Below the pieces are notes generated by a model. That model worked only from the letters and a program-made list of their open reading frames with translations. It had not been told where the DNA came from and did no database searches. The position numbers were made by a program, and so were the translations under genes. Positions 17,927 to 57,759 of a DNA stretch of 64,000 nucleotides are shown in pieces. The stretch comes from Stramonita haemastoma (lineage: Eukaryota > Mollusca > Gastropoda > Neogastropoda > Muricidae), in NCBI GenBank assembly GCA_030674155.1, contig CM060334.1:31243874-31307873 (forward strand), read 5' to 3'. Each line of letters opens with the position of its first letter. The first letter of the stretch is position 1.

Positions 17927-18142
17927 TCAGGAGGCAGCAGCGTTATCCTCTGAAGCTGCTGTTGCTGCTGCTGCCGCCTCTCCTGCTGCCCCCGCTGCCG
18001 CCTTCTTCTTGGAGGGGAGGATGTGTTCCGGGGGTTTCCAGCCTAGCACGCTTTCAATGTTTTCTGGCGGGAGCCACAGCACGTTGGGGGATGTGCCGGG
18101 CACGTACAGGCTTTTGGTGTAGAAGAAGAGGATACCGTCCAC
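17927..18142 (-). CDS. Module 2 last exon (cap-stacking Trp and Ala-rich tail)
   Basis: Acceptor CTTGCAG, entry phase 0, 71 codons then TGA (17927-17929). It begins VDGILFFYTKSLYVPG and has the conserved Trp at residue 23 of the exon (LWLPP), the same offset as in module 1 and human snurportin. The last 25 residues are Lys then Ala/Glu-rich (PSKKKAAAGAAGEAAAAATA), a simple-sequence extension from GCT/GCC repeats. Downstream, the first minus-strand AATAAA-like signals lie inside the piggyBac-like element near 17030, so the 3' UTR may end there. Confidence 0.9.
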   Translation of the reverse strand: MDGILFFYTKSLYVPGTSPNVLWLPPENIESVLGWKPPEHILPSKKKAAAGAAGEAAAAATAASEDNAAAS

Positions 18143-21100
18143 CTGCAAGGTCATCCACACTGCTGGCTGAGAGAGTCAAAGGGTCAGTCACGTTTGGGGC
18201 GGCACAGGACCAGGTCATGGTCCTTGTGTCATGCACACACCTGCCTGCCCTTATGTATCAACCTTCCACAATTATAATAATAATACTAATAAATGGAATT
18301 TATATAGCGCTATATCTTAACTGTACTTCAGAACTGCAACTTTTCATCAAGGGTTTACCACCCGATTCAAAGAGAAGTCCTCTTATTCAAAGTCATATTT
18401 CTTAACATATCTTTTGTAACAAAACACGACTTCAACATTTAATGCTTTAGAAAAAGTGGCAGCATGCTCACTGTCCCTCTTCAGACTCCAAACAGCAGGC
18501 CACTTGCAGGGACTGATCTATCTCAAAAAGGAAAACACCCATTCCTACAAACACAGGCCCCTCTCTCATCTGCCGGCCCTCAACCCAAAAGTGAGAGGAA
18601 TAGCATGAGACTGAATGGAATCACATACAATTTAGCTATTTAAAGCGAAAATTTTCTTCTTTATTCACTCTGTCCTTCCTAATAAATTCCCCGTTTATTA
18701 AATAAATGCTTTACACTAAAAATCCAGACGTGGAATTTAAGATTTATATAAATGTAGTTGGGTGTTTTTTGTTGTTGTTTTTTTGGCATCAGGCAATGAC
18801 AGCATGATGATAAGCTAATAGTAGAGCAGCTGGTCTGTTTCTTCCAAAAAGCAACCCATCAGGCCTTCCTTGAGATAAAAGAAATTATTTCTTTTATATA
18901 AAAAAAACAATTTTCAATCTAAAATGGTAAAGCAAGAAATTTTATACTCTGACACCAACAAGGTCAGTGTTTTATTACATCCTTGGTATTCTCTCTAATT
19001 GCTACGTACATCTCATCGTCTGTATGAACTTCCGATGAGAAATGTCAATGATCTGAGTACTGCTGTTATAATTCTTTGCTAGTATGTGGGTTTTTAAATC
19101 TTCTTTTCAATCAATTTTTCACCCTGCTTAAAATATCAAACTTCTAAATAATACCCACTTCAAGCTTTCAATCTTTGTTTTCTGTTGAAATGTTTTAAAC
19201 AAAATTTTGGTGTACAAAAGATGCAAGGCAAGATTCCCTGCAATTCTGACTCCCCCCCCCCCCCCCCAAATCCCCTTAAAAAAAAAAAAAAAAATAGAAG
19301 CCATGCCAGCTTACCTTGAACTGTGTCTTGTCGAGCGCCTCATACAATGCTTCCTTGCTGTAGGGTATACGCGGCATGCTCTTGAACTTATACTGAAAAT
19401 ATAACAACAGCCAGTATGTTAAACTACCAACATTCATTCCTTTTCTGCCTGCAGCTTGATTTTCAAAAACGGCTGGCGAAAAAAGTAGAAATCACAGAAT
19501 CTAGATTCATTTACAATTAAATATTCATTAAAGTGGAATTACTACTTTCACCAGTAAAAAGAAATAGCTGGTGTTATTGAATAAATTAGCTGATACTAAG
19601 TACATGAATTATCTTATCACACACTTGTTCACAAATACACATGGATGCACACATAACTTTGCATCATCAGCTAGGACAATTCCATGAAATGATTTTACAT
19701 TTTTTATTGCTCCACAGCCTGCCTTTGTAGCTGAATTTATGAAGAATCATTTTTAAATTAGTCCATTCAAATATATATAATATCAAAATAGCTTGTTCAT
19801 TTTTAAAATACAATACAAACTACAATTCAGCAAAATAAAACAGTAAAAATTCCCACAAAGAATTTATAAATTATTCAAAGATCAATATTTCTTTCTTTCA
19901 GACATTAGGCTATCACAACCCAAGATGCAATAAACACTATATTATATTTTTTATAGGGAACCAGTCAACCATCACTATGAGCCTAACTTGCAGGTTGTGT
20001 TATCTATCAGCTTTTCTCTGTAACTAAGTCAACTATCACAACCATTTTTTTAAAACATCAATCTGGATAAAAACCTTTTTCTCCTACAAAATTTGCCACA
20101 ATCTCAATTTGCTGCCATTCGCAAAATCCATATGAAAGGAATTGTGTGCAAAGTCGTTTTTGTTCCTTTTATATTCAAGATTTGAAGCAAGATAGGTGGA
20201 AATTTCACAGTCTAAAATGTACTGAAGATCGTCAAATGTTTAGTAGCAGGTTTTGGTGGTGGTGGGGGAGGGCTATGCCCAGCAAAGGGTTAAACAAAAA
20301 ATCCTTTTTTTCTAGATGCTTGTCTCAACAGATGGGATAATAAACGGATGGCAATGAAGCGAAACATCAGCCACACATTTAGGAACCCACATCAGCAACA
20401 AGAGTTGACCCATGGCAAGAATTCTGTAGTGAAAAACCTGCCCTTGCTGCAGGCAATCATGTATGCAGCCAGGGAAAAACACACAGGGTTTGCTATACCA
20501 TGTCCTCCACAGGATGAGCTGAGCAGTCTGAATCTAACACCACCACATCTGCTGTGACAAGAGGCAAGGTGACAGAAAAGGACAATACCATGACACATCT
20601 GTCATGTCATTGGAACAGGTGGTCAGGTTGGTCGCTACCCAGACAAATACAGGTTACCTCGTTCTCTGGGTGGATTGTGGTCAGGTCCCTTTCGCTCTCC
20701 ACCTGGTTAATCCAGTGAAATCGGAACTCTGCCTGTAAACCCATCAAACACATTGGATTAGCTAAACACACTGGGTTAGCAAAACACCACAGTCATCGCC
20801 TTTTTCTTTAATCTTTTTTTTTTTTTTTAAATCTTTTCTTTTAGAGGATAATGGAATAAGCACTTATGTGCTTTTTCTACATCCAGGACCTTGATTTATA
20901 GTCTCATCCAAAGGAGCCTCAAAGTCTCACAGCGCTCTGCCAACTAACTTATAGTCACACCATTGCAGAACACAGTACTTCTCATGAAATGCAGTCTTAA
21001 CTTCTTCTGTGTTCAAGTGTTAGTACTGACAGAGAAAGATGATGAACCCTAGTGGTAACAGGTGGAGCTCCTACCTTTGACAGAGGTGATGGAGACAGTG

Positions 21101-24100
21101 AACAGGTGTCAGTGGGGTGAAGAATCCCAAAACTACTGAACATGCACCAAAGGCTTCATCAGCACTCTTGAAGGTCATGCTCTATATATATATATAATAA
21201 ACCATCTGTCCAGAGGATTCTTTGGTAGAGATGGTGTGGTATACAAGAAGAGATCCATTTAAAAGCAGTGACTAACACTATGGGAAAACGACACACACAC
21301 TGAAAGAAAACCCAAATCAACCTTAAAACAATGCTGTAGTAACTTGAACCAAACTGCTTATCCCCACCAGAGAGCACTGTGAATGAATAATGCCTGTCCC
21401 AAAAAGGCCAGGAGTAGTACCTCTGACTGGTAGTATGGCAGCTGTTTCCAATGCATCAGATCCAGAATGTAGAAGGTACGGTCTGCCTTCAAGTGCAGGC
21501 AGTCCAGAATACACATGTCTGTAAGTAACAACACAACAACACTGGGTTATATGGCGTCCAGCTTTAACAAACAATACAGAGCTAAGACTTTGAATGTACA
21601 GCTATAAATGACTTCTTTATCCCCTAAGTCTTACAGAGAGAACTGACATTTTCAATTTCCTGCTCATAAAAGGATTTCGCCAAAATGAGCTGAAATGGGT
21701 AGGTATGTTAGAAATGTAATACCTCTCATACTTCTTCCTCAAGCACTCAGACAGCAACTATTGTTGCCTGTCATAATCAGTGTGAAAACGCATTGCTCTG
21801 TCATTAAGCACCTGACAAATCAGGCCCAGCGCATCCCACTTTGGCATAACCTCTCACAGTATAGAACAGATCTTCATGAAATTTAAGGACAATGTTGATT
21901 GATATATTTGTTGCATTACATTTCTGACATGTTTGTTTCATGTGACAAGACAAAGTGATTTGTTTATTTTGTCCATAATTATGATGTACTCTAACATAAA
22001 ACACAATTGTGTGAGTGTTATTTGTATGTACTCAGTATAAAAGCACAACTAATTTGAACTATACTAAGCACACAACAAACAAAAAACACAAAAGGAAACT
22101 ACTTGTGCTGTTAGATCAACTCTTTCACTTGGGGCCCTTTTAACTGTTAACTGATCATTGTGCAGTGTTTCAAGATATAAATATGCATTTTTGGCAAAGA
22201 GTTGGGTTTTTTAAAGTATGCCATCACAAAGGAAGTTGCTTGATTTTTCCATGAATATCTAAACTTTTTACTTCAAAACTGATTCTTGAGGATGACGAAA
22301 CTTAGCTGTGTGTAAAATCAGTCATTCTTTTTGTGGTCAAGCTGTTAGATATTTATACCTTGTCCAAAACAACATTGTGGTTAAGTCTGCGTCTTTCAGA
22401 TTTGTTTTTTTTTTAAGCACTGACTGGTTTAAAAAATAAAATAAACAAAGCTTATATTGAAAAAAAAAATCTATGTAAATAAGAGTACAGAAGATAAACT
22501 TTTCAATCAAAACACGTCTAGTTTTATCAATTTCACTATGTTTGCTGATCTTTTTAAAAAAATTTTTTTTAAAGGCAGTATTACAGAATAGCTAACAAAA
22601 AACCTTTAAAGCAATACCAATGAATTAACAGATGTAACTTAGGTGTTGCTCAAATCACCTGACCAACACTGTGCAGGTGTCTTATCCATTGGGCCTGGAT
22701 GACGCCAGGACATATTTTGACAGTAAGTGTAGAGTACAGGCTTGTACCTCTGACCCTGAGGATGCAATATGACAAGCTTGGTTAAGGCCCTGGGTTAAAG
22801 CTGGGTTCGAGTCCGGTTGAGGAAATTTTCTTCCTGGAGTTAACATCAGTGCTGACTCCACTCTCCCCAAAAGTCCTTTGGATGAGACTTTAAACCGAGG
22901 CCCCGTGTGCGAACGCACGCAGAACATCTTGCGCAAACGTTAAATCCTGTTCCGCTTTTCGTAAGAGTAGGCCATCGTGTGCCGGTGGGAACAGATGACA
23001 ATATTTACAAAACTGCATACACACGGGGACCGGATGAAAAAAAGCACATGATTGCTTATTCTGTTATCCTCGATATAAAAGAATAAATGATAAAAAATAA
23101 AAAATAATAATAATAATAATAAGGCCAGGGTGGAGAGACTGAAATGAAGAGCGTGGGAACAGAAGGACAGAAATGTCACAGAAATACAGTGGCAACAAAC
23201 AAAAAAAACACCACAAAATATTGAGAGTACAATGCCAATTCCAATACACGTCTGATCAACAGTAAAAGATGCACAAGTCCCAGTAAAAAAAGCAAAACAA
23301 CTTTCTGTCAGTAAAAATACATCAACAACTGTAGAGAGCATTTCGTTAGTACATAATAAAAAATAAGAACAATTTAAAAGAGAGATCTAAAACAAAAAAA
23401 AGGGTCAATACGGAGAAAAAAGATAAAGCCCATATTCTGCTTACCATTGCTCTTGATGACTTGAACAGAATGTAAGTTGCCCCCTGGCAGTGCAGACTGG
23501 AACTTCCTGTCCATGTTCATCAGTTTGTTGTAGCTGCACGTCCAGCCCTGCACACACACACAGTGACCACATTTCAACACTGCACAGCTACAATACCAAA
23601 AATGAGCTAAGAGCAAGTAAATTCTCCCTCAGGTGAAAATGTACAGTTTGCTGCATCATTGAACATACTGTCATCAAGTGAAAAAGTAGTCTGCATCATT
23701 TATGCTACACTCTCATATAACTGAATTCAGAAAAAGTTGTCTACAATCAACTGTAATAAAATTGCTGAAATTAAGCTGCTTCACAAAGTCAGTCACACTT
23801 CCTTTTTCATAAAATATTGTAAAAAGTTAATGCATAAGCCCCATTCTCGAGTCAGTTGTAACATAGATTACACCTGTTCCCTCATGAGCCATACCATTGC
23901 AAAAGCTGCAAAAGATTTTTTTTATTCCTCAGCAAGAATTCCAAGGTAATGCTGATGAGATTTTTTATTGCATGTACGCAATTGTTTGCCTGCCACCACG
24001 GTAAATGCATTCCAACCTCAGGGATGATGTCTGAGCACTATCACCTTACTGTTCACAGAATGATCTGGCCAAAATGAGCTGAACATGGGTAAGTATATTT

Positions 24101-27100
24101 AAAATGCAATAACTGATACTATACAACAGATCTGCATGAAATTTATGGATAATGTTGGAAAATGATTGTTAGATATGTTGCATTATTTTTCTTACTTGCA
24201 TTATTTTTCTTACATGTCTGTGTCATGTGTAAAAGTCATTTGTTTATTTTTATTTATTTGTAGGAATGATGTAACCACTTGTAAACAGCATAAAACATAA
24301 TTGTATAATTGGTGTTTGCATGTATTCTGAATGAAGAACAGCAATACTAAACAAACAAATGAAAAATACAAAACATATGTTAAGTATGAAAAAAGTAAAA
24401 AGAAATCAACTAGATACCTTTTGTCAACCAACCACAAAGACAAACATTGGCAGAAATCACTCGCCACGAAAAAAAACAAAAAACTGGCCAAGCCATAACA
24501 CACAAATTCTGATTTTGGACCAGAAATTTCTTGAAATAGTCAGTAACAAATGTTCATGGCCACCTGGAACACTCTTTGCAACCATCATCACTCTCACCAG
24601 AAATACTATCAACCTCACCAACATCACCTACAGTCACTTCCATGTCAATTTTCGCTTGTGTGAAGCTTTCAAAATAATTTTCTGAGTCAGAATCGACAAA
24701 CATTTCCTGCAAAAATCTTTTGAAATCTACGTCCACCATTATGGTGTTAAAAAAATCAGAAAACTAATGATTACTTTCACAGATATTCATGTTATGTGTC
24801 ATGTTGAAGGAAATGCAAATGGAGGACAGAAGAGGAAACTTCAGCCTAGCTTTGAACCTAAAGTAGCAGCTGCCATTATTTTTAACAGAAATTATGCTGA
24901 TGAACTGCAAAATTTGAACAGCCTACGTTCAGCAACATACGCACCACACACATGCAAGGGAAATAACCAGGTTCAAAGACGATGCGTCTATGGCATGCTA
25001 AATGTTGACATAATTTGCATAGAAATGCAGCATATCTTTCATCATAAATTTGGTGTATTTTTCAGCTATTTCTCTGAAAAGTTCTGCCATTTTGATGCTC
25101 ATACAAAATGGCAAAAATGGATTCATGCGGTGTGCTAGGGCATGGAAGCATAAGTCTATAAATTATCGCTGATCAGTTTTCATTAAAGTTTCTCTCCTAG
25201 ATTTGCTAGACAAAACAACCACAAAAAAACCCCAATAGATGATGTACAAAATCCTCTGTTTCTATATTTTGCCTACAAGAACAGGAAAATATGAAAGGTG
25301 TGCATGTCTTTGAATTTTTTAAAAAAAGCTCATCCCTTGTTTGATAAAACAAAAACAAAAAAATGCATGGATCAAAGAGATTTTTTTTTTTCATTCCTGG
25401 GTGCTAAATCCCGATTTGGGTTGTTTTTTTTAGAAGTCAATCCTACAAGATAAAAAAAAGCACCACAATCAACAAAAAAATACATTAAAACAAGGCAGGT
25501 GCAGGTTGCTACAGACTAAAACTTATTTTCACTACAGAGAAAAAAAATACACACACTAATCAAAGTAAAACATAAAAAAATCTGAAAACTATTGCAAAGC
25601 ATGTCTCTCTTACCAGATAGGAAACCACAATTCTCCTCTTAGCAACAGGGCAGATGACAGCCATATACTCTTTGTCAAAGTTTTCAGGAATGTACTCCAT
25701 GTTGACAGACATCATCACCTGCGCAGATCAAAACAAAACAAAAAATATTATTCGAGTATTGCATTAAATATTTTCACATTGTGAAAAAACATGAAGACTT
25801 AAAATACTTTCAGTTACATTCATTCATTTAAATATAGCAGAACAATTTTTAACCAGTATGGTGTGATGGCCAAATTTCTTCCAGTAAACTGCGATGAGCC
25901 ACGATAGTGGTTTTGTATACGTCAGGTTCAACACATCGACTATCATCGAAGCCTTTGGAAAACTGCCTCATTTTCACTTGGTTGCATCCCTCACCTGCCA
26001 AACTTCCATTCTCTGTGTGATTAGCATAGTACTGGGAGTGAACTCAAGAGGAATGTTGTTACACCAGCAAGTCAATTGTGGAAGCTTTTGTGACAAAAGT
26101 AATGATGGTGATGGAAGTAGATTTCTTCTCCGACACTAACATGCATCTAACCCTGTGTTGGCTTTGTTCTTGTTATTCTATTTAAAATTTTGTCTCTGCC
26201 AATATTGTTCATTCTGTTAAATTATGTCTCTGCCATTGAAAGGGGGTGTAGTTGATGAAGAGTGGGAGGGGTTTACCTGTCTGCAGAGCTTTTTCAATAC
26301 AATTTGTGGGATATCTCCACTACATACTAGGTTTATGTCTTTTTGTTATTAGTACATTTTACTTGTCTCTCTTTTCAAAAATGTATAGGTTTCACCTATC
26401 TAGTGTTTATTATAAACATAAAAAACCTAAATAAAAACAGAACAAAGGTAACCGCAGCTAAAAATTCTTAAAGTGCAATTTCTGTGAGCAACAATAATTA
26501 TATCCAGCAAAGCAAGGATTAAGTTTTATTTATCTATTTTATACATAATTAAGAAACTTGAAAGGCTATAGTAGATTTGTTATGCTTGGTTTAGTCAGTA
26601 CAAAACTTCATTAATTTACTACTTTATCAATTTTTTTAAAAATCTATCACATCATATCATAGCAGTTTTTAACATATAGAGAGAAGTAAGGAAAAAAACT
26701 GCCACAAACAATCTTAAAAAAGGATGTCAGAAAAGTGTAAAATGTAAATCATACTGCCAATTTTAACAGATTACAGAAACAAAGGAAAAATGCTGATAAA
26801 ATAAAACAAGTTTTTGATCATTCTGAGTAGCAATTCTGATTTTTAAGTTTGGGGTATACATGTATACACACTACATCAGAATATTATACACTAAGCATTT
26901 TGTTCAGTGGCAAAGCAGTGCTCTGATTAATGAATCAACCACCACTAAGACAGTGTTAGATTTAAACAACACAAAATCACAGAAAAAATTTTTTAAAAGG
27001 GGGGGAGGGTGGTGGAGGAGGAGAAGAAATATGGGAGAGAAAGGATAAAAAAAAATGCTTGATTTACCTCATGCCTTTCATAGTAGTCCCAGTTTGGTCG

Positions 27101-27148
27101 CTCATCAGGCACAGGCAGATGCACTTTCTTCACCCCATGGTCTCCCCC
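17927..27148 (-). CDS. Second snurportin-like m3G-cap-binding module (7 exons)
   Basis: Exons 27068-27148, 25614-25718, 23445-23547, 21421-21518, 20658-20732, 19315-19392 and 17927-18142 join in frame to 251 residues. The product matches the cap-binding half of snurportin-1, which recognises the 2,2,7-trimethylguanosine cap of U snRNAs during nuclear import. Visible family blocks are ICPVAKRRIVVS, SALPGGN, CILDCLHLKADRTFYILDLM, AEFRFHWIN and VDGILFFY. Compared with human snurportin (from memory), the equivalents of R129, K144 and W276 are kept; W107 is Asn. The end is a Lys patch followed by an Ala-rich tail and TGA. There is no importin-beta-binding segment. No start codon lies in the first exon, so it is either spliced to the upstream module (38674-57759) or begins at 29272-29280. 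Confidence 0.85.
19315..19392 (-). CDS. Module 2 exon 6
   Basis: A 26-codon exon, phase 0 on both sides, between TATTTTCAG and the donor GTAAGC. It encodes YKFKSMPRIPYSKEALYEAL and following residues, matching the FKF-x-(L/M) segment that leads into the cap-stacking exon of snurportin. Confidence 0.88.
20375..20575 (+). mobile_element. Degenerate SINE family B fragment
   Basis: AGGAACCCACATCAGCAACA, GGCAAGAATTCTGTAG and CATCTGCTGTGACAAG follow the order of the family B body and tail at 52190-52375, but with heavy divergence. Confidence 0.55.
20658..20732 (-). CDS. Module 2 exon 5
   Basis: 25 codons, phase 0/0, acceptor TTTACAG, donor GTAACC. It starts AEFRFHWINQVESERDL, the counterpart of the TDFRFYW segment in human snurportin. 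Confidence 0.88.
21421..21518 (-). CDS. Module 2 exon 4
   Basis: 98 bases entered in phase 1 (the split codon makes Asp) and left in phase 0 at a GTACTA donor. It encodes MCILDCLHLKADRTFYILDL, the most conserved strand pair of the cap-binding fold. Confidence 0.9.
21670..22100 (+). repeat. Interspersed repeat family G, copy 1
   Basis: Shares ordered blocks with 24060-24375: CCAAAATGAGCTGAA, ACAGATCTTCATGAAATTTA, ATATTTGTTGCATTA, GTGATTTGTTTATTTT, AACATAAAACACAATTGT and the terminal AAACAAACAAA-type run. The two copies lie in neighbouring introns of module 2. Confidence 0.65.
22760..23120 (+). mobile_element. SINE family A, near full length
   Basis: The head contains GGGTTCGAGTCCGG, and the body contains CAGTGCTGACTCCACTCTCC, GATGAGACTTTAAACCGAGG and GTGTGCCGGTGGGAACAG. 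The tail GATATAAAAGAATAAATGA is followed by (AAT)n. Confidence 0.85.
23445..23547 (-). CDS. Module 2 exon 3
   Basis: 103 bases, phase 0 in and phase 1 out, acceptor TGTGCAG, donor GTAAGC. It encodes GWTCSYNKLMNMDRKF, then SALPGGN. The Lys of SYNK aligns without gaps to K144 of human snurportin. Confidence 0.9.
24060..24375 (+). repeat. Interspersed repeat family G, copy 2
   Basis: Partner of 21670-22100 (see blocks there). It has an extra short duplication of TTGCATTATTTTTCTTAC at 24178-24215. It directly abuts the acidic reading frame at 24554-24739, so both may belong to one mobile element. Confidence 0.6.
24554..24739 (-). pseudogene. Acidic open frame, possibly a transposon-derived N-terminus
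   Basis: 61 codons starting MVDVDFKRFLQEMFVDSDSE, then a strongly acidic Gly/Glu/Asp-rich stretch and a Cys-containing end before TGA. It lies inside an intron of the snurportin-like gene on the same strand, next to repeat family G. Acidic N-termini of this kind occur in piggyBac-type transposases. No TTAA-bounded inverted repeats could be placed, so the class is a guess. Confidence 0.3.
25614..25718 (-). CDS. Module 2 exon 2
   Basis: 35 codons, phase 0/0, acceptor GCGCAG, donor GTAAGA. It encodes VMMSVNMEYIPENFDKEYMA, then VICPVAKRRIVVS. The alignment to human snurportin is ungapped over this stretch: the Ser-105 position is kept and the Trp-107 position is Asn. Confidence 0.9.
27068..27148 (-). 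CDS. Module 2 exon 1 (linker)
   Basis: 27 codons, phase 0/0, acceptor TTGGCAG followed by a G run, donor GTAAAT. It encodes GGDHGVKKVHLPVPDERPNW and then DYYERHE. It contains no Met, so it cannot start the protein. It lies where the other module has the [14 protein letters not shown] exon. Confidence 0.8.
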
Positions 27149-38673: not shown

Positions 38674-38939
38674 CTGTTTGTTCTTCTTCTGCTGCTGGTG
38701 TCCCTGGTTGTATTTGGAGGAGACGCTGTCTCTGTACCCCTGCATCTGGCTCAGCGTCTGGAAGAAGTGGTCATGGGGCGCCTGGGAATAGTACCCCCCC
38801 TGCGACTGATCGTACATGTAGTTCAGGTTGTAGCCCCCATAGCCGCCGAAGCCATAGCCTCCGTAGCCGATGAAGGGCTGGTAGGGGTCTTGCGAGTAGT
38901 TCTGCGAGTACTGATGCTGTCCTGTAATTTCAAAATCGC
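38674..38939 (-). CDS. Module 1 exon 12, Tyr/Gly/Gln-rich low-complexity tail
   Basis: Entered in phase 1 (the split codon makes Ser), left in phase 0 at GTAGGG, 88 full codons. It contains [16 protein letters not shown], then [17 protein letters not shown] and [10 protein letters not shown], and a basic Gln/Lys end (QQQKKNKQ). Composition is like FUS/EWS-type prion-like domains (family knowledge; function inferred). A second in-frame acceptor lies 18 bases inside (exon start 38921). Confidence 0.82.
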
Positions 38940-44013: not shown

Positions 44014-45472
44014 CCAGAAGACATAGACAGATGTGCCCACCCCAGTGTCAACAATGTCACAAACTAGTAGCACAGTAATGAAGCAGTCAGATAAAAAAAA
44101 AAGTTCCACTGACAGAGGGAAAAAAAAAAAGAAAACAAAGGAGTCAAAACCTGCCTTTAAAAAAATGTAGAAGGAATATTGACTGGACAGGGGGCAAAGA
44201 AAACAATTGAAAAGAGAAATAATTGTAAAAGAGACAGGCAACAAAAGATGAAAAAAACAAATAAACCACAAGGGCCAGATAAAAAAGATTAACTGAATAA
44301 AAATTAATTTTCAAGCCCATGATTTCCAAACATAAAAATACTAATTATACTAAAAGAGGCCCCATCATATCTCGACAAATGGTTTTATGAGCACTAGAAC
44401 ACAGTAAAACAATGACTTTTAAAGAACTAAGAAAATACATGTGTTTAAAGACACAAATGATAAAAAAAACATAAAAAAGTGAGACCAAATGACAGCAATA
44501 CGGGATACAAGAATGCTAAACGATCTTTAGGAAAGAAATATGCCGCGTTTTTTAGCACTCAACATGAAAGAAAAAGAAAGGAAAAAGAAGTGTGTAGTTA
44601 AGGTATGCTTGTACTTTTGTGACACTTTTCGTGAATAAAATCTGTTTAAACAAACTAGTGATAAGTGTATTTAATAGAGAGAGGGAAGGAGGGTCAGAAA
44701 GATGAATGGACAGACAGTGGGGGGGGTGGGGTGGAAAGATGGAGGGGTGGGTGGACAGCAGAATGGATTGAAGAATGGAGGGAGGAATGGACAGAAGGAC
44801 AAACACAGAGAAAAATAAAACAGAAAAAGATTCAGGCAACAATCAAATAAAGAAAAAAACAATTAAACCAATCATAAATTCCACCTCTTCAATTCATTTC
44901 TCCCACCATATTACTTTCCCTTAAATTCTGCATTTCATCATCTGCCACATCACCTCAATATCATATATAAATAAACCTACAAACCAACCAACAAACAACA
45001 AAAAAATACACTCAAGTATTACAGAAAATGTCTCCACAATACCAACAGTAAAAACCCAAACAACAAAACAAAGGAAAGCAAAGGAAAAAAAAAACCATAT
45101 AACAACTGACTCACAGGGTTGGACTGGGAGACGTTCTTTATGCTGGACAGGGCTTTCATTTTCTCCCTCAGGCTGCTCATGCGCTCACTGGTCTGCAAGT
45201 TTACACACACAGCACAAAAATGCAGTGAACACAGTGATTGCCAAAACTTTAAGAAGCACAAATAATTTAACTGCATACATGCCGGGACTGGATGAAAAAA
45301 AAGCACATGAGTGCTTATTCCATTATCATTGAAATAAAAGAATAAAATGAATAAGTAAAAATGATTTAAAATAAATAAATGGTAATAAGATGTGTGCTGT
45401 GTGTGGCGGAATTACAATGTGGATTCTTTCTAATTCTTAAGAATGTGAGTGTGTGAATATATGTCTGTGTAT

Positions 45473-48500: not shown

Positions 48501-49986
48501 GTGCATACAGTTTATATTTCGTTGTGCCTTAATGACATCAAAAACCCCCCACCAAATCTAGGGGTGCATGCAGTTGATATTGTACTGTGCCTTACTGACT
48601 GATAAAAAATCTAGAGGTGCATGCACTTTATATTGTGTTGTGCCTTAGTGACTGATAACCAAAAATAGTGGGTGCATTATATAATTGGAAGCACTTTGAA
48701 ACGTGTAAAATAAGTTACTGTGAAAGCATGGAAAGTAACGTTACCTCATACTTGTAGAAGCTGTGGCCTTGCCAGCTCAGCATGTCGACGACATAGTAGG
48801 TCTCATTTTCATCATTGTACAGGCAGTCCAGAATTGTGCACTGACCCTCGTCTGATACAGAAAATTCACATTTTGCTAATGTCAAGTCGAAATACTTTAA
48901 CTCATTGGCGTTATGTTTAGCTATTGACACAACAATAAAAAAAATTTAAACACTTAAATCTTTTTTCAATCCAAAGGAAATTACTCAGGTTGCTAGCTGA
49001 ATTAGTCTCCTATCAAATGATTTCCTCCCTTTAACTGTTAGTTGCTTTGCATTTTATGCTGTTGGACTTTTTCTAACATTACTGTGAGCTGATGATTGTT
49101 CAATGTGAAAATGGTGACAAAGAAGAGGTGCAAATTGAAAGAGGCAGCATTGCCAAATTTTTCTTGACAGTGACTCCTGAGCCTCAAGAAACATAACTGT
49201 GTGAGAAATCCATGTGATTCCTTCATGAGGATTAGCAGATGGATTTTACACCTTGTTGAGAGAAGCCTGTGTGTGTCAAAAGTTTTGTGTTGTTTTTTTT
49301 CTTTTAGCAACCACTGACCAACTTTAAGGAAAAACACAAAAAACATTGGGAGATCTGTGGAGAAATAGCTCTGTAAATCCTAAGTGTTTCAAATAAACTT
49401 TGATATATGATATATTTGGTTTTATCAATCTGAGAGTGATATATAATTTTTTTTAAAAGGATGCCAAAAGACTGTCACAGTTTTGTTGAGAAGTGCAAAG
49501 GACTGTGACTCCATTGTGTGAATCATACCATGAAGGTAAACTGCAGAGTTTAACACTGACAGGCGTGCAATATGGTAAAGACCACAGGCTAGGCCACACA
49601 TGAGTAAGTCAAGGCATAAAATTTGTGCAAAATTCGAATTTGTTAAAACTGTAAATTGTTGTTGATTGTGTGTTGTGTAGGTCAAATGCAAGCGCTTTGA
49701 TTTATTTTTACAAGATATAGCGCTACACAAATTCCATATATTATTATTATTATAAAGGGTAAAAAATGCTATCAACAGTTTATATCCATTAACAGGTATT
49801 TTCTATGTAAACACAAGTTCCAGGCTTGCATACATGTGTACAAGCATCATATGCATGTGTGTGCCTGTGTATGGATATATATATGTGTGCATGTGCATGT
49901 ATGCATGTGTGTGTGTGTGTGTCTTTGCGTGTGTGCATGCGTGCGTGTGTGCGAGTGTTTGACTCTGTGTGTATGTGTGAGTGACT

Positions 49987-50030
<44 letters not shown>

Positions 50031-50474
50031 GCGTGTGTGCACGTGTGCACGCGTGCATGTGTGTACATGAGTGCGTGCATGCGCTTCCATATATGTGCAT
50101 GTCCATGAGTGCGCATATGCCTGTGTGCCTGCATGCCTGTGAGAGCAAGTTGTCCCTAGAAGGTGTAAGAATGCAAGCATACAAGCCGTATCTGTAGTGT
50201 TGGATGGAGGAAAAGCCTGCAGCAGAAAAAGGCATTTAAATCTGTGTGCAAAATACCTTCCACTTTGCTGATGTCACTGGGACTGCCACCAGGCAAGTGT
50301 GTGTCATGCTCACAGATCCACGTCCCCTCCATGTCGTACACGCGTGTTGATTTCTGTTTCAGAAAGAGTATATATTAGGGCACTCCACTCACATATGCAC
50401 ACACATGCACATACACACAAACACATACACACACAACATGCATACACACACACTCACATACACATACGCCAAGA

Positions 50475-50547: not shown

Positions 50548-51883
50548 CTTGAACATGCATCCCCCCCCCCCCAACCACCACCACAACTACTAATACTATC
50601 ACAGCCACTATACTTGTACTACTGAGCTAACCCATCATACTATCGCTTATCCCTGAAGTAAAAATGCGGCTACCTCAAAAAAACGATGGCATATAATAAA
50701 ATCTAAACATAGGTGAACCTCAAAGAACACCAAGGAACAACCCCCCACCCCACCCCCCAAACAACATCACAAAAACAAACCAGCTTTGACACAGCCATCA
50801 CATCCCAGGAGAACTCACATGGGAGGCAATGACCAGGACCCGGTCGGCCTCAGGACACACGGTGCACAGCCACTCCTGCACAAGGTCCTCAGGCATCTGC
50901 TCTTTCTGGTCCACCACAGTAGGCATCATGATCTGGGAGGGGCAGAAGTTTGCACGTTAAAAGCTCACAGTGTGGGGCACAGACGGAAATCTATGGTACA
51001 CACACACACACACAATGACAAAGCTAAATGCATACGCACAAACACACAGAGAAGATCCTGACCCTACATTTAGTTTGATCTCATAATATGGACATATTGT
51101 TTATGAATACTTGATGACACTTTCCTTTTTAAAAAAAGAAGTAAAATCAGTGATACATGCGCACACACAAAGATACATGCATACGCACAAACACAGAGAA
51201 GATCCTGACCCTACATTTATTTGACTGCATGATATGGACATACCGTTTATGAATACTTGATGACTTTTTTTTCTTTTTTTAAAGTAAAATCTAGACCAAA
51301 ACTTTTGGTCTAACATATGCTAACACACCTTTCTTTTCAGTCAATGTTTCCTTTTAAAATTGATTTGATATCCTAATTTTAGACATGCCACGAACTTGAA
51401 CTAAATCCCTTTTCTGAGTTCATTAAGTAACTAATTGGAGCTGTTTTAAGGTTTAAGCAATATTTATTCTATGATGCACTGTTTTGGCCATTTCTTAAAA
51501 ATTAACCATCCCTTATAGACAGAATGTGGCAACTGAAAGGTGGGTAAAAACAGTCGCATATGCAAAATATAACCATTGGTGAACCTAGGAAGTCTAGCTG
51601 AGGAATAAATAAAATCCCCAACAACAACAAACAAATGAATAAACAATCAGCAAACATAATGGAACTGGTAAGACCAGCCATATCATGTTTTAATCTTAAA
51701 GTTTATTTTGTGTGCTTTTGATATTTATGATGAATTTTAAAAAATATGAATAGATATCTTTGTGTATTTTGTATTAAATCAAAGCAGTGAATGCCATTAA
51801 ACCAAAATGTTTGGACACTCACATACTTATCTTGACAAGGTGTAAGTTTAACAGATAATCGCAAGCAATATTCAAATTACTTG

Positions 51884-52125: not shown

Positions 52126-52156
<31 letters not shown>

Positions 52157-52417: not shown

Positions 52418-52480
<63 letters not shown>

Positions 52481-53522
52481 ATATCTATATCTTTATCCTC
52501 AATGTCACACTAAAATAAATTATGAAAAGCAGATCATTGTGCTGCTCTGGCAGTCTCAAATGTAACTGGATTTCTATCGCATCATCATTATCAACTTTAC
52601 TGATCACTGCGAAATAAATAAAAGTCAGTTTCAAACGAATGATTTTTCAAAAATTCAAATAGATCCCACATCATTCTATATCATCACTTTTACACAATAC
52701 AGTATCACTTGTGCATTTTTCATTATGGGTGCTTTCTGAAAAATAAGATTTACAAAGGCTATAATGTTAAAGGGGCATTGTAAGGCTGGAAACAAAAAGC
52801 AGAAAAGAAAATGCATTTTTTCCTGCAGCTCCCAGAGTGAAACTATGTCTGAGAAAACAGCCAGAGGTGAACTACACAGTGAGCTGTCTTTCTAACCCCT
52901 CTTTTTCCACAAAAGGTAAGGCAAGTTTATGTAACTGAGTTTACACTGTTTACTGAGTTTACAAGTTTACACTGTAGCTACACTGAAATGTGCTAGTTTG
53001 GCCATTGTTTAAAAATTCAGCAAATATGAAATAAATGGATTTAACTAGACTAGATCTACAGTTTCTTTTATGTACTAATTTTAGAGGCATATTTTCCTTA
53101 TTTTTTGTGCTAGTCAAATTTTTCACGTTCATATGTAACCTACTTAAACTGATTTGACTGTACAGCGCGGTGAGCCCATGTTTTGGGGAATTTGCGCTAT
53201 ATAAGCCTCCATTTTATTATCATTACTATCATTATATATTATCAGTACAGTACAGCAAAGTATGGTCTGCATACCTGGTTCTGGAAGCAGTTGAAGTAGG
53301 ACTGGTTGTTGTCCCCTGCCCCGTTTTCTCCTGTCTTTGGCTTGGTGGCCTGCACGATGCGCTTGATCAGCCCTTCGTCGTCAAAGCCAGACCTTGAGTT
53401 GTTCAAAACCCTTTACACTCAAACATTAGTCTTTCAAGAAGTTAGGACGAGAGAGAGACACACAGACAAACAGACAGACAGACAGACAGAGAGAGAGAGA
53501 GAGACAGAGAGAGACAGAGACA

Positions 53523-53586
<64 letters not shown>

Positions 53587-56500
53587 CACAGAGAGAGAAG
53601 ACAGAGAGAGAGAGAGACACAGAGAGAGAGAGACACAGAGAGAAGAGAGAGAGAGAGAGAGGGGAGAAGAGAGAGAGAGAGAGAGAAGAGAGAGAGAGAA
53701 AGAGAGAGAGAAAGAGAAGAGAGAGAGAGAAACTGAGAGGGAGAAACAGAGACAAAGAGAGAGAGAAACTGAGAGGGAGAGACAGAGACACAGAGAAAAA
53801 GAGTGGTGCATGTATGTGTGCATGCATGTCCGCATACGCAATTCTACTAATCCTTCATAACCGTCAAGTTATATTTTAATTACAGCATAAATGAATAAAT
53901 ACTTCATCTGCTATTTAAAAAGTCAAAACTAAGCATCAAATTGCATATAACACAACAAAATAGTTATGCTGCTATCTCATCTCAAATATATTGCACCCAA
54001 TTACACATAATGCATCACTACAACACAACTTGCTTTTTGCTTTTGTCCTTATTGTTTATCTCAACTCCAGGCCCTCATCTTCCTAGCTCTTCCCTTGTGC
54101 ATTTTTAATTCAAACATTTTAACCTACCTTCCAGTTACATCATAAACCTCACTTTCCCTTTAACTTCTATTGCTAGGTACCCAACATCAACAAGTGTAAC
54201 AATCTTGTAACTAAGTTCCAGCCCCTAAGCTACTCTTAAGATACATCATTTTTCCTTCATCTTCTCTTACTAGACATCTATTAGCAAAAACTTTGAACTT
54301 CTTAACAGAATAATCTTGCAACATAGATCCTGCTACCACACCACAAGATACATCACCAACACACTCCCTTTCGCCTCAAATTCTCTTACTAGGCATCTGA
54401 TATTAAAAAGTATGAACAGAATTTTATATGTGCATGTGTGTGCAATGCATGTGTGTGTATGTGAGTGAACACTTGCATGTGGGTGAACATGCATGTGGGT
54501 GGTTTGTGTACTTGCATGTGCATGTACGGATATCAATGATGTATAAAAATACTAAATATGCACACAGCATACAAAACTGCCTAGAATACCGTAACTGACA
54601 AGCCTATTTTCCATGACAAACTCTTTTCCAAACACTTATAAATCTGACTCGTAACTCACATGAACTGAACATCTATAAACACAGTGACTGACAAGCAATG
54701 TTTTCCACTCATAACAAACTGTTTTCCTAACGTTTATAAATCTGACTCGTAACTCACATGAACTGAACGTCTATAAACACTGTGACTGACAAGCACTAAT
54801 TTCCATTCATAACAAACTGTTTTCCTAACTGAACGTCTATAAAGACTGTGACTGACAAGCACTGTTTCGATTCACAACAAACAGTTTTCCTATCTAACCT
54901 TTATAAATCTGACTCGTACCTCACATAAACCGAACGTCTGGTTTTTTGTTGTAAGGACATAAAAGTATTGATGAACATGCCTGCACATACCAGCTTCCTC
55001 CCCCTGGCTAAACACTTACAAGCTCTGCTTCTGCAGGACCTGTTTGCGCAGTGTGTCCAGCTGTTCCGGGGTGGCCGTGTACACCATCTCCTCCATGTCC
55101 AGCAGCTGACCCCCAGGGTCCAGCCTCAGGCCGGAGGACACTTTCTCCGCCAACTCATCTACCTCTCTGCCCACACAAAAAACAACATTCAGTTAGTTAC
55201 TTTTTTTTTTGAGGGGGGGGGGGGAGGTTTATCAGGTGTATGCCTATTCTCTGAAAATTTCACACTGGAAAATGTTTTTTTTGGTATAATTTTCAATCAC
55301 TTCATCTAAATGTTCTTTATCTATAGATAATTTTCAATCACTTCATTTAAATGTTCTTGCCCTATGATTTTCTATCACTTCCTCATCCTGTATCAGCAAT
55401 TTGTCTACTAACTGAAAATTCTAGGTTTGAATACTACTAAAAAAAAAAAATCCTATCACTTCACCTTTCAGTACCAGCTGTAGACTCAATGTTTGAAATT
55501 TCTGTGTTAATTTTTTTTTTTTCTTTTTGATCACTTTGTCTTCCTGTATTGATTTCACTTTGTGCCCAGTCTGTGAACATTGTGTACAAGAAGTTTTTCT
55601 CTTTTGAGTTTTTATCACTTTGTCTTCCGAATATAAAATAACATACCCACTCTTCTGAAGTTATCAAACTGTTTTGTTTGCTTTTTTTTTTTGGGGGGGG
55701 GGGGGGGGGAGGGAGGGGGGAGGGGGTTCTTGCTTAGCAAAGATCTCTTACCCTCGTTGGTCAAAAAGGAACTCTGTAAATGTAATCCCACAACCACAAA
55801 CATGCCATGCTGATATGAGTGTTGTCTTGATGAAGACATTGGGCAGAGTGGGAACAGCCTTTTGGGGAGAGTGGAGTCAGCACTGATGTTAACTCCAGGG
55901 GAAAAATCCTCTCCAACGGGAATCGAACTCAGGTTGTCAAATCGCCAGCGCAATGTTCTGACCACTAGGCTAAGGGTAAGGTACTAAGGGTAACATCTAT
56001 GCTTGATTTCAGTCCATTTTTTTGGTAACAATTCAACCTTAGTACTAAACTTCTTAAGCCTTCTTTATATGCATTAATGAACACAATAACTTGAATAAGC
56101 TCCAAAAGCTTAAACAGACAATAACTGGTATTACAGGAACTCGATGGAACAATAGAATATATAGATATGCGGGTCAACAAACAGTACTACTGAATTAAAC
56201 TTACATTGCATACAGTCTCCACCAGACCTCTTGATATTTATAGATCCTGTGACAAGCATCAAATGAGTCCAAAGTTAAGGGCATGCTAAAGCTAAGACAG
56301 TACAGCTGCTGGGAAGGGTCTTCATTCACAGCACCCCCCCCCCCCCCCCCCTCCCTATTTCTAGGAATTAAAAAAAAAAAAATCTGTACTTTACGACTTA
56401 TTCAAGTTACTGCGTTTTTAGACTTGTTGCATGTTCTTGTGGGTTTTTTTTTCTTCAGTTTATCATCATTTCTTTGATTCATTTTTATTGAACAAGATAG

Positions 56501-56670: not shown

Positions 56671-56725
<55 letters not shown>

Positions 56726-57759
56726 GTGTGTGTGTGGTGTGTCGTGTGTGGTGTGTGTGTGTGTGGTGTGTGAGTGTTAGTGTGTGCATGCATGTGTGCA
56801 TGCACATGTGTACATGTGCATGTGTGTGAAACACAAAACGGATGTAGCAAATGCTGTGGTTTTTAGGTTTACCTTTTTTTCTAACCCAGAAATCAGCTCA
56901 TCATTAAATCTTTTCAATTCTTTTTGATATTTTTTTTTGGCTGGCCTAGAGATCCATTTCCAAAATTGTTTGCACAAATTTATACCCTATGGCTTTTTTT
57001 AATATATATTTTTTAATCTTCCTCCATTTTTAAAGCACTTAGGCTAATGTGAATATTCAGGCTGTGCCACAAGAAGTTACGACAGGTGTAACTCAAATGG
57101 GCCCCTTGTATTCAATTTCCACTTCTTCCGTTTCATCAATTTCTCTTCCGAAGCACAGCAAGACAAAAGCGAAAAAAGCCCGTACCGTAGACGACTTTTA
57201 ACACAGCTTTTTCCCCAAAAGACACAACTGTCAATAACATAGGCCTGCTTTAACTTCATTTTGTGATGCGCTTTTTGTCTGATAGAATTGTTTTGAGTCA
57301 CGACTCGGGTTTGTTGTGTAGGTGTGCAAACACTGCCAATGGTTGGCCGGCGTGTTACTGTACCGTGTACGGTTAACTTTCAACAAATGTTTTAAGACTC
57401 CTCATATCTCCTTACATAGTATCTCCCTGAGAAATTGATGACAGAAAAGCTGTCATTCAAAAAAATATGGTCTAATGGCTTTACGAGTGTAGGGCACTGT
57501 AACACCAGAGTGTTTTCATTTTGTTATGTGCAGACGACAGTGTTCCGTCGTAGGCCTAACAGATGAGCAGAGCAGTCTGCGGCCGCAGAAAACTCACCCC
57601 TTCATTTCAATAATTTTAAGACACCTCATGCCTGAATGATATGTGCATCATCAAATGAAAACAAAAAAGTGCATTCACATGTAACTTCGGGTTTGCATTC
57701 AGCATGTACACTACACAATGAGCCTTCAAAACAATTTGCAAAACGTACCTTGTCGCCAT
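38674..57759 (-). CDS. First snurportin-like m3G-cap-binding module (12 exons)
   Basis: Exons 57749-57759, 57598-57624, 56873-56945, 55020-55162, 53275-53392, 50819-50932, 50257-50353, 48745-48851, 45115-45192, 43683-43781, 41550-41835 and 38674-38939 join in frame to 473 residues without a stop. Residues 1-85 are Lys/Glu-rich and helix-prone ([17 protein letters not shown]). About 125-330 form a snurportin-type cap-binding domain ([62 protein letters not shown]). Then come a basic segment ([11 protein letters not shown]) and a Tyr/Gly/Gln tail. W276 of human snurportin has its equivalent at 312. W107 and K144 equivalents are lost, so cap binding may be weak. The last exon ends in phase 0 at a GTAGGG donor, so translation must continue elsewhere, most simply into the exon at 27148. 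Confidence 0.82.
39940..40815. repeat. Compound (GA)n minisatellite, about five units
   Basis: Long (GA)n arrays at 40135-40224, 40362-40448, 40559-40650 and 40730-40810 alternate with a roughly 100-base spacer (TCAAAGTCAATTT, GTATTTCCAA, GATCTAGATGAGAAGAG, CCAATATCAAAGT). Array and spacer together form the repeat unit. Confidence 0.9.
40990..41075. promoter_or_regulatory. Cluster of CRE-like TGACGTCA motifs
   Basis: TGACGTCA occurs at 40995-41002 and 41063-41070, with TGACGTAA at 41042-41049. All lie in the hAT-like element, so they may be mobile binding sites for CREB/ATF-type factors. Function is not shown. Confidence 0.45.
41550..41835 (-). CDS. Module 1 exon 11 (cap-stacking Trp)
   Basis: Acceptor TTGCCAG, phase 0 in, phase 1 out at GTAAGC. 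It begins [20 protein letters not shown] with Trp at residue 23. It continues into a charged helical region ([20 protein letters not shown]) and a basic Asn/Gly-rich end. It is longer than the corresponding part of human snurportin. Confidence 0.92.
41877..42330 (+). repeat. Repeat family E, longer copy
   Basis: Starts CGTTCCACCACGAAATGA and ends near CAATTCTAGTGGCTTTC. It shares ordered blocks with 8205-8465 and contains an additional 150 bases in the middle. Confidence 0.65.
42735..43035 (+). mobile_element. SINE family A
   Basis: Head GGGTTTGAATTCTG, body with ACTCCATTCACACTCCCC, core GATGAGACTATAAACC, GTGTGCCAGTGACAAAATTT, tail CTTGATATAAAAGAATAAAT. Confidence 0.8.
43683..43781 (-). CDS. 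Module 1 exon 10
   Basis: 33 codons, phase 0/0, donor GTAAGA. The acceptor ATTATCAG at 43782 keeps the frame ([20 protein letters not shown]). A nearer TTTTCAG, 18 bases inside, would lose the frame with the preceding exon, although in this register it could serve only if phase 1 were supplied. The upstream acceptor is therefore chosen. Confidence 0.8.
43974..44009. repeat. (CA)n microsatellite
   Basis: About 17 CA units. Confidence 0.95.
45115..45192 (-). CDS. Module 1 exon 9
   Basis: 26 codons, phase 0/0, acceptor CTTGCAG, donor [26 protein letters not shown] is more diverged than the matching module 2 exon (AEFRFHWIN) but has nearly the same length (26 against 25 codons) and the same flanking phases. 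Confidence 0.82.
45265..45350 (+). mobile_element. SINE family A, 3' end only
   Basis: TGCATACATGCCGGGACTGG ATGAAAAAAAAGCACATGAG and the GAAATAAAAGAATAAAATGA tail, inserted about 75 bases upstream (in gene direction) of exon 45115-45192. Confidence 0.75.
45477..45550. repeat. (AT)n microsatellite
   Basis: About 35 AT units with one ATAATAT break. Confidence 0.95.
45690..48660. repeat. 3-kb satellite array, unit about 54-58 bp, some 50 copies
   Basis: The unit contains CTAGGGGTGCATGCACTTTA, then TATTGTGCTGTGCCTTACTG and GCTTATAAAAAAAAT. Copies vary by point changes and A-run length. Sub-types (CTTACTGGCTTATAA, CTTAATGACTTAT, TGACTTAGTGACTGACAAA) recur in blocks, showing higher-order duplication (for example 47460-47700 is repeated at 47815-48050). 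It lies wholly in the intron between exons 48745-48851 and 45115-45192. Confidence 0.97.
48745..48851 (-). CDS. Module 1 exon 8
   Basis: Phase 1 in (Asp across the junction), phase 0 out at [26 protein letters not shown] is followed by [15 protein letters not shown], very close to the human [20 protein letters not shown] block. Confidence 0.95.
49880..50130. repeat. GT/GC-rich simple sequence
   Basis: GTGTGTGC-type runs with a pure (GT)n core at 49998-50024. Open frames across it are repeat artefacts. Confidence 0.9.
50257..50353 (-). CDS. Module 1 exon 7
   Basis: Phase 0 in, phase 1 out at GTATTT, acceptor [26 protein letters not shown], then [12 protein letters not shown]. The K144 position of human snurportin is Met here. 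Confidence 0.92.
50395..50560. repeat. (CA)n microsatellite
   Basis: Interrupted ACAC-type repeats followed by a pure array of about 34 CA units (50476-50545), 40 bases from exon 50257-50353. Confidence 0.93.
50819..50932 (-). CDS. Module 1 exon 6
   Basis: 38 codons, phase 0/0, acceptor CCTCCCAG, donor [23 protein letters not shown], then [19 protein letters not shown]. It has three more residues than human before the QEW motif; the W107 position is Val. Confidence 0.93.
51886..51957. repeat. (AT)n microsatellite at the SINE head
   Basis: About 34 AT units directly before the SINE at 51985. Confidence 0.95.
51985..52405 (+). mobile_element. SINE family B, best copy
   Basis: tRNA-like head (GGTGGTCTAGGTGGTCACGC, B-box-like GGGTTCGTACCCCG). 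The core TTCGGATGAGACGATAAACC is followed by CGCACGTAAAAGAACCCATG, GTTGTCCCTGGCAAAATTCT, GGGTAGGCGCTGCACTTGTG and ACATAAAGTGGTAC. It ends in (AAATAC)n running into (AT)n. Confidence 0.9.
52406..52500. repeat. (AT)n microsatellite at the SINE tail
   Basis: (AT)n with one ATAAT break, continuous with the A-rich SINE tail. It was probably seeded by it. Confidence 0.93.
53275..53392 (-). CDS. Module 1 exon 5
   Basis: 118 bases; the first base completes Leu, then [20 protein letters not shown] and a Gly/Asn-rich end, phase 0 out at GTATGC. The acceptor AACTCAAG is weak (poor pyrimidine tract); it is chosen because it restores the frame from the previous donor. Confidence 0.75.
53447..53805. repeat. 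GA/GACA simple-sequence tract
   Basis: GACAGACA, then (GA)n with CAGAGA, AGAAGAGA and GAAACTGAGAGGGAGA sub-repeats. It begins about 50 bases from exon 53275-53392. Confidence 0.93.
54060..54420. repeat. Degenerate tandem repeat, about 105-110 bp unit
   Basis: Three units end in related strings: CTATTGCTAGGTACCCAACA, TCTTACTAGACATCTATTAG and CTCTTACTAGGCATCTGATA. Each is preceded by AGATACATCA or GTTACATCA. The copies are strongly diverged. Confidence 0.55.
54585..54945. repeat. Tandem repeat, about 107-bp unit, 3.5 copies
   Basis: TATAAATCTGACTCGTAACT CACATGAACTGAAC and CTGACAAGCA...ACAAACTGTTTTCCTAAC recur in register. The third copy is shortened. Confidence 0.88.
55020..55162 (-). CDS. 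Module 1 exon 4
   Basis: [37 protein letters not shown] and on, phase 2 out at GTAAGT. Two overlapping acceptors exist (GGGCAG and GCAGAG). Start 55162 fits a phase-0 upstream exon (56873-56945). Start 55166 would fit the phase-2 donor at 57598 directly, skipping that exon. Confidence 0.85.
55855..55985 (-). mobile_element. SINE family A, head half, reverse
   Basis: TTTTGGGGAGAGTGGAGTCA GCACTGATG, AACTCCAGGGGAAAAATCC and CGGGAATCGAACTCAGGTTG end at the tRNA-like start. Confidence 0.8.
56673..56800. repeat. (GT)n microsatellite, imperfect
   Basis: About 25 pure GT units, then GTGTGGTGTGTCGTG-type variants. It lies 70 bases beyond exon 56873-56945. Confidence 0.92.
56873..56945 (-). CDS. Module 1 exon 3
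   Basis: 73 bases, first base completes Gly, then [24 protein letters not shown] and a GTAAAC donor in phase 0. Acceptor ATCTCTAG. The peptide is helical and Lys-rich and runs smoothly into VDELAEKV. It carries basic charge but no snurportin-type importin-beta-binding sequence. Confidence 0.6.
57100..57610. promoter_or_regulatory. CpG-rich region at the 5' end of the snurportin-like locus
   Basis: CpGs are dense (CGTACCGTAGACGAC, TTGGCCGGCGTG, CGTCGTAGG, CTGCGGCCGCAG) compared with flanking DNA. It covers the proposed first coding exons and intron, as CpG-rich promoters often do. No TATA box is seen. Confidence 0.45.
57598..57624 (-). CDS. Module 1 exon 2, 27-base micro-exon
   Basis: Between GCATGAG and the strong donor GTGAGT it encodes CLKIIEMK with split codons at both sides (phase 2/2). 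It fits both neighbours. An in-frame ATG at 57629 just before it would also allow translation to start here (MRCLKII). Short length makes this the least certain of the coding exons. Confidence 0.45.
57749..57759 (-). CDS. Module 1 first coding exon (proposed start)
   Basis: ATGGCGACAAG followed by donor GTACGT, with G at +4 of the start. Joined to the next exon it gives [13 protein letters not shown]. Upstream sequence to a CCTCCAG acceptor (57810) would be 5' UTR. The same exon is open in another frame ([20 protein letters not shown]), which cannot continue beyond the next junction. Confidence 0.45.

What the first reader, a model, noticed from the sequence alone, without database searches (positions are those of the whole stretch)
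17927..57759. Two snurportin-type cap-binding modules with identical intron architecture
Both modules contain the same ordered exon set: CP(V/E)xxxR strand, LPGG segment, ILDCL block, variable 25-26 codon exon, pre-Trp exon, LLFYHK/ILFFYT exon. All six boundaries within or entering the domain have the same phase (0, 0, 1, 0, 0, 0), and the cap-stacking Trp is residue 23 of its exon in both. This shows duplication of a multi-exon block, not retroposition. Snurportin has one such domain in the animals I know.
Basis: partly seen in the sequence, partly recalled or inferred. Interest (0 to 1): 0.88.

Follow-up and report, generated by a model that had tools for sequence, protein, structure and literature searches.

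The report
Two snurportin-like genes without import tag
The stretch holds two old, diverged copies of the RNA-cap-binding part of snurportin, the adaptor that carries splicing RNAs into the nucleus; no import tag was found on either and both lack the residue tied to choosing the special cap, so they probably do a different job from the complete snurportin found elsewhere in the same genome.

Summary
On the minus strand lie two multi-exon copies of the snurportin cap-binding domain, A (57759-38674) and B (27148-17927). Both match Pfam PF21974 far above cut-off (E 3e-38 and 3e-49) and human snurportin-1. All six domain junctions agree in phase (0,0,1,0,0,0) and the cap-stacking Trp is residue 23 of its exon. 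The reading changes, because the same genome holds a complete snurportin 5.8 Mb away (C19:37.066-37.074 Mb) with the same junctions and phases, plus a B-like copy on C13. The shared architecture is therefore that of the snurportin gene and does not show that A and B are copies of each other (24% identity). One importin-beta-binding domain was found genome-wide, in the complete gene. A keeps an export-signal pattern but not the basic import segment. A, B and the C13 copy lack the Trp107 reported to discriminate trimethyl from monomethyl caps; A and B keep the stacking Trp276. B and the C13 copy show purifying selection (dN/dS about 0.1). I judge them diverged, import-disabled snurportin paralogs. 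Their function is inferred.

The parts
57749..57759 (-). A exon 1: predicted start (MATR), donor phase 2
   Evidence: ATGGCGACAAG|GTACGT read; phase fits exon 2. Weakest exon of the model; no RNA evidence.
55020..55166 (-). A exon 2: export-signal-like segment [14 protein letters not shown], then a segment in place of the importin-beta-binding domain; ends phase 2 as in the complete gene
   Evidence: end-anchored similarity to the NES/IBB exon of the complete gene, both ends together 0 of 20000 shuffles (anchors chosen by eye)
53275..53392 (-). A exon 3: linker exon, phase 2 in, phase 0 out
   Evidence: acceptor context weak, a second in-phase acceptor 18 bases upstream is possible
50819..50932 (-). 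A exon 4: domain start, CPEADR strand; Trp107 absent
50257..50353 (-). A exon 5: LPGG exon, ends phase 1
48745..48851 (-). A exon 6: ILDCL exon
   Evidence: found by the PF21974 genome search
45115..45192 (-). A exon 7: variable exon, 26 codons
   Evidence: aligned with the FRFYW exon of the complete gene
43683..43781 (-). A exon 8: pre-Trp exon, 33 codons
41550..41835 (-). A exon 9: LLFYHK exon with the Trp276 equivalent as residue 23
38674..38939 (-). A exon 10: Gln/Gly/Ser/Tyr-rich tail, donor phase 0
   Evidence: highest coding score in 41500-25750 (the score was trained on A, B and the complete gene, this exon included); tail composition
27068..27148 (-). B linker exon (first B exon found), phase 0 in (the complete gene and A have phase 2 here)
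   Evidence: homologous exon in the C13 copy
25614..25718 (-). B CPVAKR exon; Asn at the Trp107 position
23445..23547 (-). B LPGG exon, ends phase 1
21421..21518 (-). B ILDCL exon
   Evidence: found by the PF21974 genome search
20658..20732 (-). B FRFHW (variable) exon, 25 codons
19315..19392 (-). B pre-Trp exon, 26 codons
17927..18142 (-). B last exon: ILFFYT, Trp276 equivalent as residue 23, stop codon; AATAAA at 17037

Best explanation
A and B are old, diverged paralogs of snurportin-1 that keep the cap-binding fold but have lost, or never had, the nuclear-import role. Shown: both are snurportin m3G-cap-domain proteins with the intron pattern of the complete gene; no importin-beta-binding domain is recognisable in what was found of them or near them; the stacking Trp276 is kept and Trp107 is absent in both. 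Inferred: A is exported by CRM1 through its N-terminal signal but cannot be imported by importin beta, so it stays mainly in the cytoplasm and holds capped RNA (m7G or a broader range than m3G) through Trp276 stacking, with its Gln/Gly/Ser/Tyr-rich tail joining RNP assemblies. B likewise binds capped RNA with altered methyl preference, with an N-terminus of its own that is still unknown. Import of spliceosomal snRNPs stays with the complete gene.
For: PF21974 in A, B and the C13 copy at E 3.4e-38, 3.4e-49, 2.9e-40; the complete gene at 4.5e-78 plus the IBB family PF11538 at 8.1e-9. The whole-genome search for PF11538 at E up to 1 gives one match, in the complete gene (26 candidates scored). 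Junction phases and columns are shared. A exon 2 is the counterpart of the NES/IBB exon: same phase-2 exit, similarity anchored at both ends in 0 of 20000 shuffles, all five hydrophobic export-signal positions kept (40 of 20000 shuffles do so), while net charge over 46 residues at the IBB position falls from +10 to -2. Trp107 is W in human and the complete gene and Q (or V if ungapped), N, T in A, B, C13; Trp276 is kept in A and B. PMC3278928 (passages seen) says in its text that Trp276 stacks on the cap and Trp107 discriminates m7G from m3G. B against the C13 copy: dN 0.22, dS 2.1, ratio 0.10 over 184 codons (NG86). The B protein, searched against the whole genome at E up to 1, matched only B (6 places), C13 (4) and the complete gene (1).
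Against: No transcript or protein data. The first exon of B is unknown, so B could carry an import signal of another type. One missing Trp does not show that m3G binding is lost, and in A the Pfam match begins at profile position 10 of 179, so the Trp107 position of A rests on the five-row alignment alone. A legend of the cited review names Trp107, not Trp276, as the stacking residue, against its own text; the original structure paper was not held. The export motif of A has Val for the Met that is essential in human snurportin (PMC4588050 passage), and the human signal itself is called a weak CRM1 binder (PMC4596688 passage). The anchors of the exon-2 test were chosen by eye, and an unanchored local alignment is not significant (140 of 2000 shuffles). 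dS is saturated, and two of three dN/dS methods failed (YN00, LWL85). The C13 copy runs into an assembly gap before its Trp276 position, and its LPGG-exon donor is uncertain. The IBB profile also rang, below cut-off, in 1 of 14 control genomes.
Confidence: 0.6

Rival explanations
1. A and B are one gene: the A tail exon (donor phase 0) splices to the B linker exon (acceptor phase 0), giving a protein with two cap-binding domains.
For: The join is in frame and open; the coding-score scan of 41500-25750 found, besides those two exons, one weak candidate of another phase (38164-38049, score 8.4); same strand, 11.5 kb apart.
Against: The C13 copy of B was found without an A-like partner: the PF21974 search found the domain at four places in the genome, one on C13 (best candidates only), and the N-terminal peptides gave only low scores (at most 34) in the 47 kb upstream of it. 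Many short terminal-exon candidates and 20 poly-A signals lie in the gap, though such short candidates are expected by chance.
Confidence: 0.2
2. A and B are redundant snurportins that still import snRNPs, with an undetected or replaced importin-binding segment.
For: The cap-binding domain is intact and B keeps Ser105, Arg129, Lys144 and Trp276 (that the first three are cap contacts is recalled); the B N-terminus is unknown.
Against: One IBB match in the genome; none found by local alignment in the window or in 60 kb around the C13 copy; A's counterpart segment has net charge -2; Trp107 absent.
Confidence: 0.12
3. One or both are decaying copies without function.
For: A is long-branched (tree); the last exon of the C13 copy is interrupted by a gap; terminal exons of A and B were not found.
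Against: The exons found are open with AG/GT at internal ends; B against C13 shows dN/dS about 0.1; the domain scores are far above cut-off.
Confidence: 0.06

Closest known systems
Snurportin-1 (SNUPN; PDB 1XK5, 3GJX)
   Same: Cap-binding domain PF21974 over nearly its whole length, stacking Trp276, LPGG and ILDC motifs; junction phases equal to the complete gene of this genome; A keeps the hydrophobic spacing of the N-terminal export signal
   Different: No importin-beta-binding domain found; Trp107 replaced in A, B and the C13 copy; 34-37% identical to human, against 58% for the complete gene; A has a low-complexity tail; B has a different 5' junction phase
mRNA guanylyltransferase (capping enzyme, PF01331)
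   Same: The complete gene has a sub-threshold match to its profile (E 0.058); snurportin is described as resembling it (PMC3278928 passage)
   Different: A and B show no match at E up to 5 (HMMER's filters drop most matches above 0.1); no catalytic role is suggested

Membership tests
Snurportin-1 | m3G-cap-binding domain (PF21974) | tested here: met
   A 131.9 bits, B 167.7 bits, cut-off 27
Snurportin-1 | Importin-beta-binding domain (PF11538) at the N-terminus | tested here: not met
   No match in A or B as assembled, one match in the whole genome, in the complete gene, none by local alignment in the window. B's first exon is not known.
Snurportin-1 | N-terminal CRM1 export signal with five hydrophobic positions | tested here: inconclusive
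   A keeps the spacing with Val in place of the first Met; B's N-terminus was not found
Snurportin-1 | Cap-stacking Trp276 | tested here: met
   Trp in A and B; the C13 copy is cut by a gap
Snurportin-1 | Trp107, tied to m3G/m7G discrimination | tested here: not met
   Q or V in A, N in B, T in C13; W in human and the complete gene. In A the Pfam match starts just past this position.
Snurportin-1 | Specific binding of m3G-capped snRNA and import | not testable with these tools
   Needs binding and import assays
Retroposed copy | Intronless copy | tested here: not met
   Ten exons found in A, seven in B
mRNA capping enzyme | PF01331 catalytic domain | tested here: not met
   No match for A or B at E up to 5

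The most novel reading that the evidence does not exclude
Snurportin has an ancient side branch, older than or near the split of protostomes and deuterostomes and lost in vertebrates, of import-disabled cap readers with changed methyl preference. In this animal A and B could even be one two-headed protein that grips two capped RNAs.
Probability: 0.15. Interest if true: 0.75.

Novelty: new variant of a known kind. Interest (0 to 1): 0.48.

Why it matters
A review calls snurportin-1 the only vertebrate protein with a solved structure compatible with the trimethylguanosine cap (PMC9145092 passage); it is the importin-beta adaptor for snRNPs, and its deficiency causes a muscular dystrophy in people (PMC10899626, passages seen). 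Natural paralogs that keep the stacking Trp but lack Trp107 and the import tag would separate cap binding, cap discrimination and transport, and would show that the fold has been reused for another RNA task. Binding assays on A and B would test the proposed role of Trp107 directly.

Tried and rejected
Rejected: retroposition (introns kept); A and B as recent copies of each other (24% identity); the shared intron pattern as evidence of an A-B block duplication (also in the complete gene and, where placeable, the C13 copy).

Led nowhere: IBB-like peptides in the window and 60 kb around the C13 copy (best 38 against 170 for the true exon) and N-terminal peptides upstream of B and C13; shared upstream exons of B and C13 by donor-anchored comparison and by tblastn (output cut, where rows of queries that also hit the complete-gene region were dropped: what remained upstream of the linker exon looked like dispersed repeats); coding-score search for the missing exons; a tree of five domain sequences with human as the only outside one (LG+G4, 100 bootstraps: support 54 for A with B, uninformative). 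One search failed for a wrong option and gave no hits. Pfam on parts of the window with stops read as X (three minus frames of 27000-41999; three plus frames of 1-15000; three minus frames of 3000-17999; one minus frame of 50000-63999) gave only a weak PF21974 match, A's last domain exon; the rest of the window was not scanned this way. Viral contigs: 38 stretches matched a pattern, none confirmed. Literature: searches for snurportin with mollusc, gastropod, paralog, invertebrate, gene duplication, or as '-1-like' listed no paper whose title or shown abstract start deals with snurportin paralogs; one search showed 15 of 6,547, one search showed 4 of 5, its one paper, searches found none. The library lacks most subscription journals. 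Structure prediction was not used, because the spliced proteins are not letter-for-letter readings of the DNA. The species was not identified: the planned test (molluscan haemocyanin family PF14830; that it is mollusc-type is recalled) did not complete.
Full report
What is there. The window is part of a 2.17-Gb genome (contig C19, 31243874-31307873). On its minus strand lie two sets of exons that encode the snurportin cap-binding domain. Set A runs from a predicted start codon at 57759 through nine further exons to 38674; set B runs from a linker exon at 27148 to a stop codon ending at 17927. With the then unplaced stretch before the last exon masked, both match human snurportin-1 in the PDB (E 1.1e-29 for A, 6.2e-27 for B). 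With all exons found, A reaches 7.7e-33. Pfam gives PF21974 (snurportin m3G-cap-binding domain) at 131.9 and 167.7 bits against a cut-off of 27.

The six junctions entering and inside the domain have phases 0,0,1,0,0,0 in both, and the Trp that stacks on the cap is residue 23 of its exon in both.

A genome-wide search with PF21974 returned six exon matches in four places: A, B, a gene at C19:37.066-37.074 Mb on the plus strand, and a gene at C13:49.552-49.558 Mb. The search works exon by exon and scores only the best candidates, so a further diverged copy is not excluded; the B protein, searched at E up to 1, matched only B, C13 and the complete gene, and the same search with A did not complete. 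The C19 gene is a complete snurportin, with an N-terminal MDELTAALAGSFEI, an importin-beta-binding domain (PF11538, E 8.1e-9) and the cap domain at E 4.5e-78. It is 58% identical to human in the domain. Its exons start in phases 0, 2, 0, 0, 1, 0, 0, 0, and its Trp is again residue 23. Five of six domain junctions fall in the same alignment column in the four copies; the third differs by up to four columns in a gapped stretch, one of them because I marked C13 at its first whole codon. In the C13 copy the LPGG-exon donor is uncertain, and its assembled frame breaks at that exon for this reason; its other junction ends agree. So the intron pattern is that of the snurportin gene itself. It shows DNA-level duplication of a multi-exon gene, not retroposition, and it does not tie A to B. 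A and B share 24% of residues; A and B each share 36% with the complete gene; B and the C13 copy share 72%.

Import part. PF11538 matched once in the genome at E up to 1, in the complete gene (in 14 control genomes it rang once, below cut-off). Local alignment of the import-domain peptide to the window and to 60 kb around the C13 copy found nothing comparable (best 38 in the window, none at 34 or more near C13, against 170 for the true exon). A's second exon sits where the complete gene has its NES/IBB exon, leaves in the same phase (2) and resembles it at both ends (18 BLOSUM units each; 16, 33 and, for the sum, 0 of 20000 shuffles). The anchors were chosen by eye, and an unanchored alignment is not significant (140 of 2000). 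The five hydrophobic positions of the export signal are M, L, L, F, I in the complete gene and V, L, V, L, L in A (40 of 20000 shuffles keep all five). Over 46 residues at the import position the net charge changes from +10 to -2. A review states that the first Met of the human signal is essential for CRM1 binding (PMC4588050, passages), and another paper calls the human signal a weak binder (PMC4596688, passages), so A's signal is a prediction with reservations. B's linker exon begins in phase 0, not 2, in B and in the C13 copy if the nearest upstream acceptor is used, so B's N-terminus seems rebuilt; its first exon was not found.

Cap pocket. By human numbering (N100 as the first residue of the human row, which puts W at 107 and 276), the Trp276 equivalent is present in A and B. 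Trp107 is W in human and the complete gene, but Q (V if aligned without gap) in A, N in B and T in the C13 copy. In A the Pfam match starts at profile position 10, so this column rests on the five-row alignment. A review summarising the crystal structure says in its text that Trp276 stacks on the cap while Trp107 lies by the N2 dimethyl group and discriminates m3G from m7G; a figure legend of the same review names Trp107 as the stacking residue (PMC3278928, passages), and the structure paper itself was not held. Arg129 is kept in all; Lys144 is Met in A; Ser105 is Pro in A (that these three are cap contacts is recalled, not checked). Loss of selectivity is an inference.

Age and selection. Between B and the C13 copy, 184 codons give dN 0.22 and dS 2.1 (NG86, saturated; two other methods failed), ratio 0.10. 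The uncertain end of the LPGG exon and most of the last exon were left out of that count. This means long-standing constraint on the protein. Where human and the complete gene differ, A matches human only at 15 sites and the complete gene only at 14; for B the counts are 10 and 11, for the C13 copy 10 and 13. There is no sign that A or B arose late in this lineage, but with two references and saturated divergence this is weak. The unrooted tree gives 100 for B with C13 and 54 for A with B.

Mechanism, most likely. A and B are cap-binding proteins outside the import route. A probably leaves the nucleus by CRM1 and is not re-imported by importin beta; its Gln/Gly/Ser/Tyr/Asn-rich tail (59% of the last 118 residues found) suits RNP assemblies. 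Shown: domain, no import domain found, residue changes, constraint on the B type. Inferred: localisation, cap preference, partner RNAs.

Limits. An in-frame join of A's tail exon to B's linker exon is possible, so a two-domain protein is not excluded; the lone B copy on C13 speaks against it.

Noticed in passing
window 45716-48666: A 56-base minisatellite of several dozen copies (TRF) fills much of the intron between A exons 6 and 7.
   Followed up: no
window 2245-2590: Tandem array of a 22-base unit, 16 copies.
   Followed up: no
window 9347-9419, plus strand: tRNA-like match just above the Rfam threshold (31.6 against 29 bits), not called by ARAGORN; may be a tRNA-derived repeat.
   Followed up: partly
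window about 22.9, 27.6, 42.9, 45.3 and 62.9 kb; also L007, L008, L010: One or more dispersed repeats recur in introns of A, B, the complete gene and the C13 copy and outside them (tblastn matches).
   Followed up: no
L010, C13:49557940 onward: The last exon of the C13 B-like copy runs into a stretch of N soon after its LFFHCKGLY segment, so its stacking Trp cannot be checked.
   Followed up: no
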